Source of the DNA: Sphingopyxis panaciterrae
GTDB taxonomy: Bacteria > Pseudomonadota > Alphaproteobacteria > Sphingomonadales > Sphingomonadaceae
Assembly (NCBI RefSeq): GCF_011762125.1
Contig: NZ_JAASQN010000002.1
Location: 868,001-932,000, forward strand
Length of the DNA stretch: 64,000 bases
Direction: 5' to 3'
The position numbers and the translations under genes were made by a program. Below, in pieces: positions 13,128 through 59,094 of the stretch (position 1 is the first letter of the stretch; each line of letters starts with the position of its first letter). The notes beneath the pieces were generated by a model. That model was not told where the DNA came from. It searched no databases and saw only the letters and a program-made list of their open reading frames with translations.

Positions 13128-13952
13128 TTGAGCATTCTTGATAAGGTTAGAACGCGCTTTGTGCATCGGTCGCTTTTGGTCGATGGCGAAGTTTGGTCAT
13201 TCGTGGAAACCAAAGAAGAAGGGTTTCCGCTAGTGTTGCTGCCCGGCGCTCAAGGCACCGGCGACATTTATTTCAATCAAATGCTTACGCTCGGCCAAGA
13301 TATCAGAATCATCGCCGTCACTTACCCAGAGGTTAGCGATTGCCAATCGCTGGCGAATGGTTTCCGCACGTTCCTCGATGAACTTGGGATTTCCCGCGCA
13401 GTTTTTTCGGGTAGTTCGTTTGGCGGCCTGTGGCTTCAATTTTTCGGTGCGCTTTTTCCTCAATATGTGGCCGGCGCCGTGCTCGCTAACAGCTTCATCG
13501 ACAGCCAAGCTAAACAGAACTTCCTCGATATGGCCTTGGCCATGAGCGGCGCCGACCTTGTGACCATGGTTAATCGCGGCGCTCAGGCTAAGGCCGGCCA
13601 GAGCGCAGAGCATACGCAACTATCTGAAATTATTGGAGAATTGGTGGGACCGGTTCAGTCAGGAGAAGGGCTGCAATCTCGGCTACGCGGGTTAAGGTTC
13701 AGCGATGTGGCGCCCGTGATAGACATTTCCGCGGAACGAGTTGCCTTAATTGAGTGCGACGACGACCCGTTGATCGATCCAACTATGCAGAATGAGATCG
13801 CCGCGCGGTATAGCCGTAGTGCGCGGCACAAGATCGAGGGCGGCGAACATTACCCCGCCGTGCTTAAGCCAGAAAGATACACGGCAATTCTGCGTGACTT
13901 TTACACCGCAATCGCAAAGGCCGAGGCGGCGCTCGTTGGGAGTGAGAGATGA
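13128..13952 (+). CDS. Alpha/beta hydrolase (maspardin-like)
   Basis: A 274-residue alpha/beta hydrolase. The nucleophile elbow is GSSFG with Ser97, the acid is probably in CDDDPLID, and the histidine lies in EGGEHYPAV near the C-terminus. The start is a TTG; an AGGCGAAGG stretch lies upstream and no in-frame ATG exists nearby. The stop overlaps the next gene (ATGA at 13949), coupling it to the 2Fe-2S subunit. In this setting it may hydrolyse an amide, ester or lactam linked to the molybdenum hydroxylase product; that is inference. Confidence 0.82.
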
Positions 13953-14395
13953 TATCATTCCGACTGAATGGAGAACCCGTTAGCGTCGATGTTGATCCAG
14001 AGAAGCCGCTTTTGTGGGCGATCCGTGAAAACGCCGGCCTCACTGGGACGAAGTTTGGCTGCGGCAAGGGTTTATGCGGCGCATGTACAGTGCATGTCGA
14101 TGGCGACGCCCAACGCTCCTGTTCGGTGCCGGTAAGTGAAGTCGAGGGTAAGTCTGTCCTGACGGTTGAGGGTCTGTCAAACGATCGCTCGCATAAGTTG
14201 CAGCAAGCCTGGATTGAGCATGCGGTGCCGCAATGCGGCTATTGCCAGAGCGGCATGTTGATGGCTGCGGCTGGGTTTCTTGCGACCAATACGGATCCAT
14301 CGGACGCGGACATCGATGCCGCCATCACCAACATCTGTCGTTGCGGCACCTATCACCGCATCCGCGCGGCGATCAAAGCAGCCGCCACCGCTTAA
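13949..14395 (+). CDS. (2Fe-2S)-binding subunit, isoquinoline 1-oxidoreductase-like
   Basis: A 148-residue small subunit of a xanthine-oxidase-family molybdenum hydroxylase. The plant-ferredoxin-type cluster is bound by C38, C43, C46 and C58; the second, helical cluster by C96, C99, C130 and C132 (QCGYCQSG...CRCG). Length matches the IorA/NdhS family. It overlaps the upstream hydrolase by 4 nt and precedes the large subunit by 13 nt. It carries electrons from the Mo centre to an acceptor, probably a c-type cytochrome in this subfamily since no FAD subunit is encoded. Confidence 0.93.
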
Positions 14396-14408
14396 TGGAG
14401 TGCGCTCA

Positions 14409-16604
14409 ATGACCCAAGGCCAGACGCGTGCGCACAAGCTGGACCGACGTCAATTCCTGCGCCGGAGCGGTGCGGTCGCAGGTTCCGTCGTCCTGCTCCA
14501 GATCGCAATTTCGCTGGAGGGTTGCACATCCGGTTCGTCGTCACCCGATGTCTTGGCCGAGACGGTCGCGTCCAACGCCTTCCTCCGGCTGCACGCGGAC
14601 AATTCAATCTCCTTCCTCTCTCCCGCCGCCGAGATTGGGCAGGGCACGTCGTCAACGCTGGCGATGATCGCTTGCGACGAACTAGGGGCCGATTGGAACA
14701 AGACCCGCTTCGAGTTAGCGACCGGTCTTCCCGAATATCGCAACATGCTGCTGGGTCAGCCAGGACAGCTCTATGCGGGAGAGCAGGTGACGGGCGGCAG
14801 TACGGTAACCGCCGGTTTCTTCATGCCAGTTCGAACAGCCGCAGCGCAGATGCGCGAGATGTTGACGCTTGCGGCGGCCCAGAAATGGCAAGTGAATCCA
14901 GCCGAATGCAGTACAGCCGATGCTGCGGTGAAGCATGTCGGCTCCGGACGATCAATAATGTTTGCAGCGATCGCTCCGGCTGCGGCTGAATTGCCCGTCC
15001 CCGCCAAGCCCGCGTTGCGCGATCCAGCGGAATGGAAACTGATCGGGCGTCCGCAGAAGCGCCTCGACATCCCATCCAAGGTTGACGGCAGCGCCATCTT
15101 CGCCGTCGACGTGGTGCGGCCCGGGATGCTGTATGCGGCCATCCGGCATGCACCCGTCGTTGGCTCGAAGCCGGTGCGCGCGGACGAAGCTAAGGCCAGG
15201 GCGCGAAAGGGCGTCAAACACGTCTATCTGATCGATAATTTTGCCGCGGTCGTCGCCGACAGCTGGTGGACGGCGAATACCGCGCTGGAGGAGATGGACA
15301 TCCAGTGGTCGGACGCTCCCAATGCGCAGGCCAGTACGGCGACCGAACTGGCAAAACTCAAGGCTGCGCTCGATGGTCCAGGCGCGTTGCCGTTCGAAGT
15401 CAAAGGCGATGCCGCCGCTGCGTTCGCGGCCGCCAAGACCAAGGTCGCGCAGGACTATGATGTCCCTCATCTCGCCCATGCGACGATGGAACCAATGTCC
15501 GTGGTCGCCGAATTTACGGCGGATGGGCTGTCAATCTGGACCGGCGCACAGGGGCCAACGGTCCAGCGGCGCGCCGCAGCCTCCGCAGCCGGCTTGCCCG
15601 AGGAAAAGGTCCATCTCACGGTCACCTATGCCGGGGGAGGCTTTGGGCGGCGTGGCGACCTCGATTATGTAGAGCAGGCCGTAAAGATCGCGCAGCGGGC
15701 GGCGGTCCCGATCAAGCTAATCTGGTCGCGCGAGGAGGATATACAGCACGATCAATACCGCCCGTTCACCGCGATCAGGGCTGAGGCGGCTCTGGACGCA
15801 AAGGACAACCTCTCCGCCCTCCGCATGCGCGTGGCCGGGCGTGGCCCTTGGAGTGACCAGCGTCCCTATCTTGTGCAAAAGGGCGTCGATTTCATGCTGA
15901 TTGACGCCCTCAACACCAAGACCTATCCGGCCGCGAACGCACTATTCGAGGTAGCGCCGACGACCAGCGCCGTAAGGCATGGACCGTGGCGCGGGATCGC
16001 CGTGCCGCCCAACATCTTCTTTCTGGAATCGCTGATTGACGAGCTCGCGGTGGCAGCCAAGCTGGACCCGATCGCCATGCGCCGCCCGTGGCTGGCTGGC
16101 GACAAGCGCCTTCTGGCCGTGGTCAACAAGGCCGCGAAGGAGGCAGGCTGGGGCGCTGCACGCGAGGGGCACGCACTCGGCTTTGCCTGTTACACCGAGG
16201 AGCGGTGGCTCTGCCGCGTCGCCACCGTCGTAGACACCTCGCTCGTGGACGGAAAACCAAAAGTGGATCGGATCGTCGTCGCCGTCGACCATGGCTTTTC
16301 GGTCAATCCCGCCAATGTGATTGCGCAAATTCAGGGGGCAGCCCTTTTCGCGCTGACCGCGGCGCTAAAGGGTGAAATTACCATCAAGGATGGGCAGGTC
16401 GAGCAGTCGAATTTTCATGATTATCCCGCGATCATGCTGGCTGAGGTACCCCCTGTCGACGTCTTCCTGATAGCGGGCGATCAGATACCGGGAGCCGCCG
16501 GGGAAATTGGCGTGCCCGCGATCGCCCCCGCGCTGACCGCATCGATTTTTGCGCTGACGGGAAAGCGCATTCGCTCGTTGCCGGTCAGCAAGCATTTCGC
16601 CTGA
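14409..16604 (+). CDS. Molybdopterin-binding large subunit, isoquinoline 1-oxidoreductase beta-like (Tat-exported)
   Basis: A 731-residue aldehyde oxidase/xanthine dehydrogenase-type large subunit of the IorB branch. It begins with a twin-arginine signal (DRRQFLRRSG, residues 12-21) and hydrophobic stretch, so the complex is probably periplasmic. The cofactor motif GGGFGRR and the PGAAGEIGVPAIAPAL segment with the catalytic Glu are intact. TGGAG precedes the ATG; the upstream open frame overlaps the small-subunit gene. The family hydroxylates N-heterocycles or aldehydes. XdhC and MocA-type maturation genes lie 4-6 kb downstream. Confidence 0.93.
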   Translation: MTQGQTRAHKLDRRQFLRRSGAVAGSVVLLQIAISLEGCTSGSSSPDVLAETVASNAFLRLHADNSISFLSPAAEIGQGTSSTLAMIACDELGADWNKTRFELATGLPEYRNMLLGQPGQLYAGEQVTGGSTVTAGFFMPVRTAAAQMREMLTLAAAQKWQVNPAECSTADAAVKHVGSGRSIMFAAIAPAAAELPVPAKPALRDPAEWKLIGRPQKRLDIPSKVDGSAIFAVDVVRPGMLYAAIRHAPVVGSKPVRADEAKARARKGVKHVYLIDNFAAVVADSWWTANTALEEMDIQWSDAPNAQASTATELAKLKAALDGPGALPFEVKGDAAAAFAAAKTKVAQDYDVPHLAHATMEPMSVVAEFTADGLSIWTGAQGPTVQRRAAASAAGLPEEKVHLTVTYAGGGFGRRGDLDYVEQAVKIAQRAAVPIKLIWSREEDIQHDQYRPFTAIRAEAALDAKDNLSALRMRVAGRGPWSDQRPYLVQKGVDFMLIDALNTKTYPAANALFEVAPTTSAVRHGPWRGIAVPPNIFFLESLIDELAVAAKLDPIAMRRPWLAGDKRLLAVVNKAAKEAGWGAAREGHALGFACYTEERWLCRVATVVDTSLVDGKPKVDRIVVAVDHGFSVNPANVIAQIQGAALFALTAALKGEITIKDGQVEQSNFHDYPAIMLAEVPPVDVFLIAGDQIPGAAGEIGVPAIAPALTASIFALTGKRIRSLPVSKHFA

Positions 16605-19770: not shown

Positions 19771-20655
19771 ATGAATCAGACGACCCTATCGAACCTCCCC
19801 GTTCAATTGCGGCACGTCCGTCATGCGGATCTTCAGGAGGACACTGAGGCTTATCCGGATGTAATGGAGCCAGCGCGGCGGCGATCGATCAGTCATGTTC
19901 TCGGTCAGCATCCGAAGGCAGCGCTACGAGGCACGCACAAGTTCCATTTGGACTATCTCGTCTCCGGCGCTGCGACGGAGCCGCCGCTTCACTCGCATGA
20001 CTATTCCGAGATATTCATGGTCCTGCAAGGCGGCTATCGCTTCTTCTGGGGCAATCATGCGGAGCATTATGTCGACTTGGGGCCGCTCGACATGTTTTCC
20101 GTACCGCCGAAGGTGATGCGGAAATTCCACTCTAACCGCGAGCAGCCCGGCATGCTGCTGGCGATATTCGACACCACCTTGCGCGACCCCGACGACGGGA
20201 TCGTGATTTCACAAGCGCTCATCGATGAAGAGGGCGGCGCCGAAAAATATGCGAAATACGGTTCGGGCTGGGGTGACTCCGTCGATGAAGATGGTATTCA
20301 GTCTTATATAGCTCGCATCTCCGACCTCGCATCCAAGGCTCCGGATGAGGGCGGCATCGTACCGCTAATCGCAACGGACCAAGCCGATGCAGGCATCTCG
20401 ACTCCTCACCATGTAACCGCCCAGTTCGTCTTCGTGAACGGTTCTCTCGATGTCGAGCCGACAGCCGCTACGGAAGTGTTCGTTCCCGTCAGGGGGGGAT
20501 CCTGCCAGCTGACCGTTGATGGAGAGACGTTTGACCTACAGTCATTCGACGCGCTCTCGGTCGATGGTGGCGGTACACGGTCGCTTCTCGCCCCGAACAA
20601 CGAACAAGTGGTCCTTCTCCGGATCATCGACACCCGCTCCGAACTGGCCAAGTGA
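19771..20655 (+). CDS. Cupin-domain protein (bicupin)
   Basis: A 294-residue protein. The first cupin (residues ~60-125) has the metal-binding pattern PLHSHDYSEIF (H74, H76, E80) and a later histidine (KFHSNREQPG). A second, degenerate cupin-like barrel (residues ~205-285) lacks the histidines. AAGGAG at 19755-19760 sets the start. Metal-dependent ring-cleaving dioxygenases and sensory cupins share this pattern. It follows the TonB receptor, and XdhC follows it. A ring-opening dioxygenase is possible but unproven. Confidence 0.75.
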   Translation: MNQTTLSNLPVQLRHVRHADLQEDTEAYPDVMEPARRRSISHVLGQHPKAALRGTHKFHLDYLVSGAATEPPLHSHDYSEIFMVLQGGYRFFWGNHAEHYVDLGPLDMFSVPPKVMRKFHSNREQPGMLLAIFDTTLRDPDDGIVISQALIDEEGGAEKYAKYGSGWGDSVDEDGIQSYIARISDLASKAPDEGGIVPLIATDQADAGISTPHHVTAQFVFVNGSLDVEPTAATEVFVPVRGGSCQLTVDGETFDLQSFDALSVDGGGTRSLLAPNNEQVVLLRIIDTRSELAK

Positions 20656-20822
20656 CCGTGATTTGAAGATGCTTCCAACGCGCCACCCGGATGACCGCGC
20701 GCTGCGGTGGCGCTTGGGGCTGCGGGCCGACGGACGATGCCCTTGGCGCTCGAACCCGAGGAAAAAAGGCATTTGGAACGACAAGTTCGCCGGTGATGCG
20801 CCTCGCGCTCGATGTCAGATCG

Positions 20823-21803
20823 ATGACTGACTGGCTCGAAACCGGGCTCGACGACGATATGCGCCCGCACATGTTCGGTGCCCTGGACGCGGGCCAGACT
20901 TTTGCCCTGGCCACGATCATCGCCGCGGATGGGGGGCCGCGGCCGGTCGGGGCGCAGATGGTGGTCACCGCCGACCATTCGTGGGGTTACCTGTCGGGCG
21001 GCTGTATCGAGCCCGACGTCGTGCTTCATGCCCGGCAAGTCATGGCCGACGGGACGCCGCGCACCTTGGTCTATGGGCGCGGCAGCCCTTTCATAGACAT
21101 GCGCCTGCCCTGCGGCGGACGGGTGGAGTTGCTCGTCGAGCGCGTACAGCCGGACGACGGCGCACTGGCCGATCTGCGGCAGCTGACGAACACGCGCAGG
21201 CTGGCCCGTTGGGAAAGCGACGGCCGCTTCCGCCGGTGCATCCCGCATGATCCGGCACAAGTGGGACGTTCTGAATTCGCAAGGCTCTATGCGCCGTATC
21301 AGCGGCTGGCGGTAGTCGGCACCGATCCGTTCGCCCTGGCGATCGCGAGGCTGGGCCGGATCGTCGGATGGCAGACATCGCTGCACGCGCCATCAGGTCC
21401 GGCGCCCTCGCCTGCGTTCGACATGCCATATCGCCCGGAGACAGTGCCTTTGCCCCTCACCGACATGGTTCCCGATCGCTGGACGGCCATCGCCGTCGCG
21501 ACGCACGAAATCGACGCCGACGAAAGGGTGCTCGTGCAGGCGCTGCGCTCCGACGCCGGATACGTCGGCCTGCTCGGATCGCGTCGCCGCGTACCCGAAC
21601 TACTTGAACGCCTGCGCAGATCGGGGCTGGATGACGATGAGATTGGCCGCCTGCGCGCGCCGATCGGACTGCCAATCGCGGCGAAGTCTCCCTGGGAAGT
21701 AGCTGTGGCCGTCGCCGCAGAAATAATCGCAAGCTACAGGAAGGCCGACGCTTGCCGGCCCCTATTGATAGAGGCCGCGGTGCATGAGACGACCGTTGCC
21801 TAA
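20823..21803 (+). CDS. XdhC family molybdenum-cofactor maturation protein
   Basis: About 326 residues. The N-terminal XdhC/CoxI domain is clear (FALATIIAADGGPRPVGAQMVV, GYLSGGCIEPDV), followed by the C-terminal Rossmann XdhC_C domain (YVGLLGSRRRVPELLERL). XdhC proteins bind and sulfurylate the molybdenum cofactor before insertion into xanthine-oxidase-family enzymes, here presumably the isoquinoline oxidoreductase-like enzyme at 13.9-16.6 kb. The start at 20823 gives a normal N-terminus; an in-frame ATG at 20796 is an alternative. The 20656-20822 spacer holds nothing I can name. Confidence 0.88.
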   Translation: MTDWLETGLDDDMRPHMFGALDAGQTFALATIIAADGGPRPVGAQMVVTADHSWGYLSGGCIEPDVVLHARQVMADGTPRTLVYGRGSPFIDMRLPCGGRVELLVERVQPDDGALADLRQLTNTRRLARWESDGRFRRCIPHDPAQVGRSEFARLYAPYQRLAVVGTDPFALAIARLGRIVGWQTSLHAPSGPAPSPAFDMPYRPETVPLPLTDMVPDRWTAIAVATHEIDADERVLVQALRSDAGYVGLLGSRRRVPELLERLRRSGLDDDEIGRLRAPIGLPIAAKSPWEVAVAVAAEIIASYRKADACRPLLIEAAVHETTVA

Positions 21804-22373
21804 CGGAGTTCATGCCATAGTTCTGGCAGGGGGGCTGCGCGGCGTTTTGGCGGCGGGAAGCTATCGACCGAGTTCCGAGGGCGACCGCTCATCGCATGGG
21901 CCGTCGACACGGCGCTGGCCCTACGGGTTGAAGCGGTCCGCGTAGTCCTGGGTGCGGAGGCGGAAGCCGTCCGGGCGGCGCTGCGCGATACGATCGACCC
22001 GCGCCTTGCCTTTGCCCACTGCGCTGATTGGTCGCAGGGTCTATCGGCTTCGCTCGGTTGCGGCATTGCGGCGCTGCCGTCGGACGCGACAGGCGCGATG
22101 GTTTTCTTGGGCGACGTGCCCGCGCAACTCGCCCGCCGCGTCCTTGCTGCCCTGGCGGAAGGGGCGCGGGCGGCCGGTCCGGTCTGCCAGGGACGGCCCG
22201 CGCATCCTGTCGGGATCTCCAGCGCGCTTTTTCCGGCGGTACGGGCGTTGTCCGGCGACAGAGTTGCTCGCGAACTTTTGCAGGACATGAGCGGCGTAGA
22301 AGAGATCGCCACCGACGACGCCGGCAGCACCTTTGACATCGACACCCTCGACGATCACCGCGCCGCCAGCTGA
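21784..22373 (+). pseudogene. MocA-type molybdenum cofactor cytidylyltransferase, frameshifted
   Basis: The first codons read VHAIVLAGG in one frame; the rest (RRFGGGKLSTEFRGRPLIAWAV... to a stop at 22371-22373) lies in another. The two join in a run of six G at 21829-21834: a seventh G would restore one ~196-residue protein with the nucleotidyltransferase motif LAGG..RRFGGGKL. MocA adds CMP to the cofactor used by xanthine-oxidase-family enzymes. The start overlaps the end of xdhC, so the two are coupled. This could be a true lesion, a phase-variable tract or a sequencing error. Confidence 0.82.
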
Positions 22374-24419: not shown

Positions 24420-24672
24420 AATGCCTATTTATGATGAGCGGGCGGGGCTACGCGATCCAGCCCGTTCAAAGGTGCGGCCGCGCGTGCGGGCCGAGGCCAT
24501 ATTCGCTGTCATTCGCTTCCCGCGCCACCTGATCCAGGTCATCGAAGCGTTGCGCGACGAGGACCGGGCCGAATATTTCTTCGCACACGACGCTCATGTC
24601 GGCGTGACATCGACCAGAACCATGGGATTGACATAGCAGCCGCCGTCCGAGGCCGGTGCGCCGCCTGCTTTG
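24420..24672 (-). pseudogene. Aldehyde dehydrogenase C-terminal remnant
   Basis: Reverse-strand translation gives CYVNPMVLVDVTP, then after a one-base frameshift MSVVCEEIFGPVLVAQRFDD and ANDSEYGLG. That is the EEIFGPV region of NAD-dependent aldehyde dehydrogenases. The N-terminal catalytic half is absent and the frame breaks at least once, possibly twice. The fragment starts right after the acyl-CoA dehydrogenase stop, marking a recombination or decay junction at the end of that operon. Confidence 0.8.
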
Positions 24673-24673
24673 C

Positions 24674-25786
24674 TCACGCGGCCTGTCCGAACCGGATGAA
24701 CCGGGCGAGGTGGTGATCTTCATCGCCGAGTTGATGACCGATCATCACCAGCCGCTTGGCGAAGTGCGACACCGGAAGCTCCCAGGTCATGCCCATGCCG
24801 CCATGCAGCTGGATCGCTTCTTCGGCGACCAGCGTGCCCGCTCGCCCGATCGTGTACTTCGCCGCCGAAACACTCCGTTCGCGTTTGGCGCGATCGCCCT
24901 GCAGGGCGTTGGCGGCGTTGATCGCCGCCGATCGCGCCTGTTCGATCTCGAGCGCGACGGTGGCCATGCGATGTTGTAGCGCCTGGAACTTGCCGATCGG
25001 AACGCCGAACTGATGGCGCGTCCGCAGATAGTCGAGGGTGGTCGCTTTGATCATGTCCATGATGCCGACGGCTTCCCAGCTCAGCGCGACGATGCCGGCC
25101 GCGACGACATCCTCCAGGACCGGATGGGCATCGTCGGTCAGCAGCAGGCCTGGCGTGTCGACCAGCTGCAGCTCGCCTGCGCGTCCGCCGTCGATCAGCG
25201 GATATCCCTCGACAACAACTCCAGGCGCCGCGCGCTTCACGAGGAAGAGGCCGATGCCCGCGCGCTCGCCTTTCATTCCAGCGATGCGCGCAGAGACGAT
25301 GATATCATCCGCAGCCTCGAGCTGCGGCACGACCGCCTTGCCCCCGTTAAGGAGCCACGCATCTCCATCTCGCCTTGCGTGCGCCGCGATGTTCGTCAGA
25401 TCATAACGGCTTGCGGACTCCTCATGTGCGAATGCCAATATCGAGGCGCCACCCAGGACGTCGCCGATCAGGCCGTCGTGACCGCCCACCATGGCGAGCG
25501 TCCGCGTCGCCATGAGCGTCCCGAGAAATGGCTCCACCGCCATGGCGCGCCCCAGCTGCTCGAAAATCGCGGCAATGTCGAAACCGCTGCCGCCAAAGCC
25601 CCCCGCGGTTTCCGAAACCAGCCCGCACAGGACCCCAAGCTCGGCCAGTTCGGCCCAGTGGGCCGGAGACCAGCCGATCGCCGACGCGCTGATCTCGTGC
25701 CGCACTTCGACCGGATACCGCTTCTGGAGAAAGCGACCGAACGTTTCGGCGAGCATCGACCGTTCCGCGCTATGGTGAAAATCCAT
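24674..25786 (-). CDS. Acyl-CoA dehydrogenase (short, subunit-like)
   Basis: A 370-residue flavoprotein of the acyl-CoA dehydrogenase fold with the C-terminal FAD signature QLHGGMGMTWELP. The substrate-binding middle domain is reduced and lacks the classic tryptophan-containing FAD motif seen in its partner. It begins 2 nt after the stop of the 398-residue dehydrogenase at 25789-26985. Such tight pairs of short dehydrogenases form alpha2beta2 heterotetramers in actinobacterial steroid side-chain oxidation (ChsE type), and I infer the same here. Last gene of the NMO-hydratase-dehydrogenase operon. Confidence 0.92.
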   Translation of the reverse strand: MDFHHSAERSMLAETFGRFLQKRYPVEVRHEISASAIGWSPAHWAELAELGVLCGLVSETAGGFGGSGFDIAAIFEQLGRAMAVEPFLGTLMATRTLAMVGGHDGLIGDVLGGASILAFAHEESASRYDLTNIAAHARRDGDAWLLNGGKAVVPQLEAADDIIVSARIAGMKGERAGIGLFLVKRAAPGVVVEGYPLIDGGRAGELQLVDTPGLLLTDDAHPVLEDVVAAGIVALSWEAVGIMDMIKATTLDYLRTRHQFGVPIGKFQALQHRMATVALEIEQARSAAINAANALQGDRAKRERSVSAAKYTIGRAGTLVAEEAIQLHGGMGMTWELPVSHFAKRLVMIGHQLGDEDHHLARFIRFGQAA

Positions 25787-58334: not shown

Positions 58335-58830
58335 TCATTCGAAGTTCACGCACCCGCCGGCCACCGTCCCGCCGTCGATGACCAAGTCATGACCATTGAC
58401 GTGAGCTGCGTCCGCGCTGGCAAGAAAAGCCGCCGCTTTGGCGACATCCAGGGCATTCCAGCGACGTGGCGGGGCATCTCAGAGGCCAACTTCGCCGTAA
58501 GCTTCCGCAACTTGCCCTCGGCATGCGCCGGGTCTAGCTGCGACGCCGCCTGAGAGCCGCCGAAGAAGATCGGCGTCGCAATCGCGCCTGGCGCAATCGA
58601 ATTGACTGTGACCCCTTGTCGACCAAGCTCGACAGCGGCCAGTCTGGTCGCATGCGCCACGGCCGCCTTGGCGATGTCGTAAAGATATTCGCCCATGTGC
58701 GTGTGCGTGCGCAGACCGGCTACGCTCGTCGTGTTGATGACCCGTCCGAAGCGCTGCGAGCGCAATGCTTTAGGGCCCGCGCCAAGCGCAGGATCGGTCG
58801 CGTACCGTCCACCGCCCCGCCGCCGCGACA
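58335..58830 (-). pseudogene. SDR pseudogene (truncated and frameshifted)
   Basis: The readable part starts around LRSQRFGRVINTTSVAG and includes active-site YDIAK and VNSIAPGAIATPIFFGG, then after GMP the frame shifts; the other frame continues LDVAKAAAFLASADAAHVNG and DLVIDGG to a stop at 58335-58337. The whole N-terminal cofactor half is missing. Two lesions make function unlikely. Confidence 0.8.
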
Positions 58831-59094
58831 CGCGCGTGTGCCTTCGTCGATGTTCGGTGGGCATCGGGCGGGATTCTTTGGTATCCTTTCACCTCCCGCA
58901 GCCTAGTGCAGACGATATGCCAATAGCACGGGAAGAACGCATATATAGCGAGGGCTGATGGGTGCTGGCCGGGACGATCCGTCGCAAGGGGCCGGTATAT
59001 CATCGATACCGGCTCACCGATAACGCTGTCCGATCCCAGCGATACGACGCAGGCGAGCTACAAGCATTGCGATAATGAAGCAATTTGGGCGCGG

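What the first reader, a model, noticed from the sequence alone, without database searches (positions are those of the whole stretch)
21784..22373. mocA-type gene broken at a G6 tract: lesion, phase switch or base-call error
Adding one G to the run at 21829-21834 restores a full ~196-residue cytidylyltransferase, and the rest of the frame is intact to its stop, so decay is recent or not real. The matching molybdoenzyme (13949-16604) would need such a protein unless another copy exists.
Basis: seen in the sequence. Interest (0 to 1): 0.6.

Follow-up and report, generated by a model that had tools for sequence, protein, structure and literature searches.

The report
Frameshifted mocA gene, backed up elsewhere
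A gene for attaching a nucleotide to the molybdenum cofactor is thrown out of frame near its start by a one-base shift, but the same genome holds a second intact gene of the same family, so this looks like an ordinary, fairly fresh gene break rather than a switch.

Summary
The mocA start frame (ATG 21784) spells the family's first strand, leaves frame at the G6 run 21829-21834 and stops at 21943-21945. The rest of the protein lies open in another frame to 22373, with no ATG/GTG/TTG start before 22098. The genome has a second, intact mocA-like gene on another contig, beside its own xdhC and molybdo-hydroxylase, so the window's enzyme need not lack cofactor. Phase switching is unsupported: six bases is short, a G7 and another G6 in the same gene cluster lie in unbroken frames, and 0 of 9 relatives checked has such a run. 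Programmed frameshifting is unsupported: no stable downstream structure. A run-prone assembly is unlikely: in 864 kb, 0 of 75 G/C runs of six or more in gene bodies coincides with a called frameshift, though one isolated error cannot be excluded without reads. 32 of 33 homologues have LAAG where this gene, read across the shift, has LAGG, so the run may be a by-product of the lesion. Verdict: probably a real, young, one-base lesion in a redundant accessory gene; ordinary.

The parts
21784..21945 (+). start frame of mocA: first 17 codons fit the family, then out of frame, stop at 21943-21945
   Evidence: compared by eye with the relatives
21829..21834 (+). G6 run at which the frame changes
21804..22373 (+). 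body of MocA (NTP_transf_3) in the second frame, open but without a start codon before 22098
20691..21803 (+). xdhC, the molybdo-hydroxylase maturation chaperone gene directly upstream; its stop lies inside the mocA start
   Evidence: XdhC_C 103 bits, XdhC_CoxI 75.5 bits; second xdhC of the genome on C4
13949..14395 (+). [2Fe-2S] subunit of the molybdo-hydroxylase
   Evidence: Fer2_2 96.9 bits, Fer2 42.3 bits
14409..16604 (+). molybdopterin-binding large subunit with an RRQFLRR stretch near its start
   Evidence: MoCoBD_1 126 bits, MoCoBD_2 86.2 bits (searched from 14280); start and N-terminus printed

Best explanation
The gene is a MocA-type CTP:molybdopterin cytidylyltransferase gene that follows xdhC in the cluster of a xanthine-oxidase-family molybdo-hydroxylase. 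A one-base shift at or beside the G6 run has inactivated it: ribosomes starting at 21784 leave the frame after about 17 codons and stop at 21943 (shown by the sequence). Without the first strand and its nucleotide-binding loop the remaining frame cannot be made as a working enzyme (inferred). The lesion is probably real and young, and tolerated because a second intact MocA-type enzyme on contig C4 can supply the cytidylylated cofactor in trans (inferred; its specificity was not tested).
For: Frames and stops. Intact second gene, 192 codons, with LAAG, DMP and GDRGG motifs. Three molybdopterin large subunits but only two xdhC genes in the genome, so supply in trans is needed for at least one enzyme if it uses these factors. 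No general excess of frameshifts at runs in 864 kb of the same assembly. Two other gene remnants in the same window that are not at long runs. LAAG in 32 of 33 homologues and three residues missing after the GDxP motif fit a real change in a gene under weak constraint.
Against: No reads and no second isolate: an isolated sequence error at the run gives the same picture. The body looks under constraint: no stops, codon use within the range of genes (27th percentile of 263), ordinary branch length 0.46 among values of 0.01 to 0.82. At the looser 70% threshold its departures from conserved columns, 6 of 37, are mid-range among the 34 sequences, and in the close set mocA (5 of 41) does not clearly exceed xdhC (8 of 107). 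The detector used for the assembly survey misses many shifts (108 of 200 found at the strict setting) and did not call the mocA lesion itself.
Confidence: 0.66

Rival explanations
1. Isolated base-call or assembly error: the gene is intact in the living strain.
For: The only break is at a G run, the classic place for indel errors (recalled). The body is open, has gene-like codon use and an ordinary branch length. The genome is a draft in 11 contigs.
Against: In 864 kb of the same assembly 0 of 75 G/C runs of six or more in gene bodies coincides with a called frameshift; 2 calls at the strict setting, 9 at the looser one. A G7 and a G6 in the same cluster lie in unbroken frames. Read across the shift the motif would be LAGG, which 1 of 33 homologues has.
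Confidence: 0.27
2. Backward slippage by one base, of the ribosome or of RNA polymerase, on the G run makes some full-length MocA from the sequence as it stands.
For: The start frame reads two GGG codons in succession over the run, so a backward slip can re-pair.
Against: No downstream structure beyond shuffles (z +0.52; 134 of 200 shuffles fold at least as well). No run of six G near the start in 9 of 9 relatives checked.
Confidence: 0.04
3. Phase switch: the run length changes reversibly and turns mocA on and off.
For: A mononucleotide run at the 5' end of a gene is where such switches sit (recalled).
Against: Six bases is not unusual: 14 G/C runs of six or more in the window, 153 in 864 kb. 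Not conserved in 9 relatives. A metabolic accessory gene with a second copy is not a typical target (recalled). The paper search for phase variation, molybdenum cofactor and homopolymer together listed one paper, on the M. tuberculosis pan-genome, not opened.
Confidence: 0.03

Closest known systems
MocA, molybdenum cofactor cytidylyltransferase (TIGR03310; PucB TIGR03202 is next)
   Same: The body matches profile positions 8-186 of 188 at 89.7 bits and lies directly behind xdhC
   Different: Below the curated cut-off of 186.45, as is the intact C4 copy (93.4 bits); split over two frames; LAGG instead of LAAG when both frames are read
xdhC-mocA pairs, such as pAO1 of Arthrobacter nicotinovorans and pucA-pucB of Bacillus subtilis (passages of PMC2997495)
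   Same: A mocA-type gene next to an xdhC-type gene, serving xanthine-oxidase-family enzymes
   Different: Here the mocA is frameshifted and a second set exists on another contig
Solved MobA/MocA-related proteins 2we9 (also 2wee, 2yes), 2waw and 3d5n
   Same: Sequence alignment over nearly the whole second frame (E 1.1e-9 to 9.9e-8)
   Different: Those chains begin before the matched part; the window frame starts only inside the first motif

Membership tests
MocA cytidylyltransferase | NTP_transf_3 domain | tested here: met
   87.6 bits against a cut-off of 27
MocA cytidylyltransferase | score over the TIGR03310 equivalog cut-off | tested here: not met
   89.7 of 186.45 bits for the body; 1 of 14 control genomes passes it
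MocA cytidylyltransferase | LAAG motif (called canonical for MocA in a passage of PMC5239795) | tested here: not met
   LAGG if both frames are read; LAAG in 32 of 33 homologues
MocA cytidylyltransferase | one uninterrupted frame with a start codon | tested here: not met
MocA cytidylyltransferase | CTP-dependent activity on the molybdenum cofactor | not testable with these tools
   needs a biochemical assay
Phase-variable contingency gene | long repeat run, longer than the genome's common runs | tested here: not met
   one of 14 G/C runs of six or more in the window; a G7 nearby in an unbroken frame
Phase-variable contingency gene | mixture of run lengths in one culture | not testable with these tools
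   no reads held
Programmed -1 frameshift site | stimulating RNA structure downstream | tested here: not met
   z +0.52 for 21835-21915
Programmed -1 frameshift site | conservation of the site in relatives | tested here: not met
   no run of six G near the start in 9 of 9 relatives checked

The most novel reading that the evidence does not exclude
The G run works as a built-in slip site: occasional backward slippage gives a small dose of full-length MocA, which keeps the cofactor supply of this enzyme low and leaves it leaning on the second copy.
Probability: 0.04. Interest if true: 0.4.

Novelty: new member of a known kind. Interest (0 to 1): 0.1.

Why it matters
Mainly for annotation: the cluster's molybdo-hydroxylase should not be called cofactor-less, because an intact MocA-type gene exists elsewhere in the genome. 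If the lesion is real, the strain is a natural case in which one cytidylyltransferase may serve several molybdo-hydroxylases.

Tried and rejected
Tried, little gained: DNA search of the locus in 80 genomes of the genus matched 12 of 80, itself plus 11 with matches of 26 to 48 bases only, so there is no second isolate to compare. Protein search in the genus: 7 of 80 at E 1e-5 including its own, the next best 40% identical. Class search at E 1e-30: 1 of 385, itself. Genome-collection scan: one remote relative, 40%. Plasmid collection with the protein: 18 records, each under 60% identity; with DNA 11000-35000: three records, two of them acyl-CoA dehydrogenase stretches and one a 51-base match without annotation. 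Rfam and tRNA scans of the window: nothing.

Rejected: read-through of the TAA at 21801-21803, which would join xdhC to the mocA body (they share a frame), because that product would not contain the LAxG strand. Internal start at ATG 22098, which leaves only the last 91 residues. A strong claim of old decay from odd residues: the close-set and 70%-threshold comparisons do not bear it out.

Full report
What is there. The G6 run is at 21829-21834. The frame of ATG 21784 spells MRRPLPNGVHAIVLAGG, the first strand and turn of a MobA/MocA-like nucleotidyltransferase, then unrelated residues, and stops at 21943-21945. The rest of the protein is in another frame, open from 21804 to 22373, matching NTP_transf_3 from profile position 7 to 157 and TIGR03310 from 8 to 186. 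It has no ATG, GTG or TTG before 22098. Its codon score is 0.15 per codon in frame and negative in the other two frames; it stands at about the 27th percentile of 263 long frames in the sample, and its third-position G+C at about the 45th.

Surroundings. The gene follows xdhC (20691-21803; XdhC_C and XdhC_CoxI), whose stop lies inside the mocA start. The same strand carries an alpha/beta hydrolase, the [2Fe-2S] and molybdopterin subunits of a xanthine-oxidase-family enzyme, a TonB receptor and a cupin gene. From recall the enzyme looks like isoquinoline 1-oxidoreductase; no call gave that name, and no NCBIfam model reaches its cut-off for either subunit. xdhC beside mocA is a known arrangement: passages of PMC2997495 describe it for pAO1 of Arthrobacter nicotinovorans and for pucA-pucB of Bacillus subtilis. 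In 7 of 7 relatives examined an xdhC (48-60% identical) lies directly beside the mocA. One of the seven (L071) also has the molybdoenzyme genes at 64% and 34%; two more have weaker small-subunit matches at 37%.

Is the cofactor gene missing from the genome? No. NTP_transf_3 finds 14 places in the genome and TIGR03310 six, the two best by TIGR03310 being a gene on contig C4 (92.8 bits) and the window gene (88.9 bits). Both lie far below the curated cut-off of 186.45, which 1 of 14 control genomes passes. The C4 gene is whole: GTG at L009 1477 to TGA at 2053-2055, 192 codons, with LAAG, ADMP and GDRGG. It lies between an xdhC and a molybdopterin large subunit, both on the other strand. The genome has three MoCoBD_2 large subunits (C4, the window, C6) and two xdhC genes. 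That the C4 enzyme serves the window's oxidoreductase is inference.

Is the assembly prone to such errors? A codon-usage gene model that allows frameshifts was run on 40 stretches of 20 kb and the window, 864 kb of 4.84 Mb (first version on 464 kb). At the strict setting it gave 2 frameshift calls away from stretch ends, one of them within 30 bases of a C5; at the looser setting 9, three of them near a G/C run of five. None lay within 30 bases of a run of six or more, although 75 of 153 G/C runs of that size lie in gene bodies. An earlier, still looser run gave 14 such calls in 464 kb, one near a run of five A. The detector found 108 (strict) and 130 (loose) of 200 simulated one-base losses at G/C runs of five or more. 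It did not call the mocA lesion itself: shifts near a gene's 5' end are found poorly, 19 of 63 simulated against 41 of 57 in mid-gene. So a generally run-prone assembly is unlikely, but one isolated error is not excluded.

Is it a switch or a programmed shift? Six bases is not remarkable here: 14 G/C runs of six or more in the window and 153 in 864 kb. A G6 at 20931 lies inside the XdhC_CoxI match of xdhC, and a G7 at 20492 inside the cupin frame, which the gene model follows without a shift although Pfam matches only its earlier part. None of nine relatives has a run of six G in the 320 bases around the start. RNA downstream of the run folds no better than shuffles (z +0.52). The start frame does read GGG GGG over the run, so slippage is possible in principle.

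How did it arise? Among 33 aligned homologues 32 have LAAG and one LAGG at this turn; the C4 copy, not in that alignment, also has LAAG. A passage of PMC5239795 calls LAAG the canonical MocA motif, citing Neumann 2011 (that paper was not seen). Read across the shift this gene has LAGG. So the lost base need not have been one of the run, and the run may have formed with the lesion. This is inference from motif frequencies; it weakens slippage in the run as the cause.

How old? The body has no stops, gene-like codon use and an ordinary branch length (0.46; the other tips 0.01 to 0.82). It departs at 5 of 26 columns that at least 85% of homologues share, more than 31 of the other 33 sequences (one equals it, one exceeds it), and lacks three residues after the GDxP motif that the 33 others have. 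Against this, at a 70% threshold it departs at 6 of 37, mid-range (3 to 14), and in the close set it departs at 5 of 41 invariant columns compared with 8 of 107 for xdhC, too small a difference to call. The lesion looks young; a period of relaxed constraint before it is possible but not shown.

Other decay nearby. An aldehyde dehydrogenase remnant at 24469-24723 (profile 358-397 of 461) and a short-chain dehydrogenase remnant at 58349-58864 (profile 119-202 of 236; by eye its end seems to go on in another frame) lie in the same window. They make a real lesion in mocA more believable.

Verdict. Most likely a real, recent, ordinary frameshift in a redundant cofactor gene (0.66); isolated sequence error second (0.27); slip site (0.04) and phase switch (0.03) unlikely. 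Interest is low.

Noticed in passing
window 24469-24723 (-): Aldehyde dehydrogenase remnant: only profile positions 358-397 of 461 match.
   Followed up: partly
window 58349-58864 (-): Short-chain dehydrogenase remnant that lacks its front half (profile 119-202 of 236); by eye its end continues in another frame, and the gene model placed a weak frameshift call there.
   Followed up: partly
window 20492-20498 (+): A G7 run, the longest single-base run in the window, inside the unbroken cupin frame of the same cluster.
   Followed up: partly
window 21801-21803 (+): xdhC and the mocA body share a reading frame, parted by a single TAA.
   Followed up: partly
G000:C6:65028-67070: A third molybdopterin large subunit; neither xdhC of the genome nor either of the two best MocA-type genes lies on that contig.
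   Followed up: no
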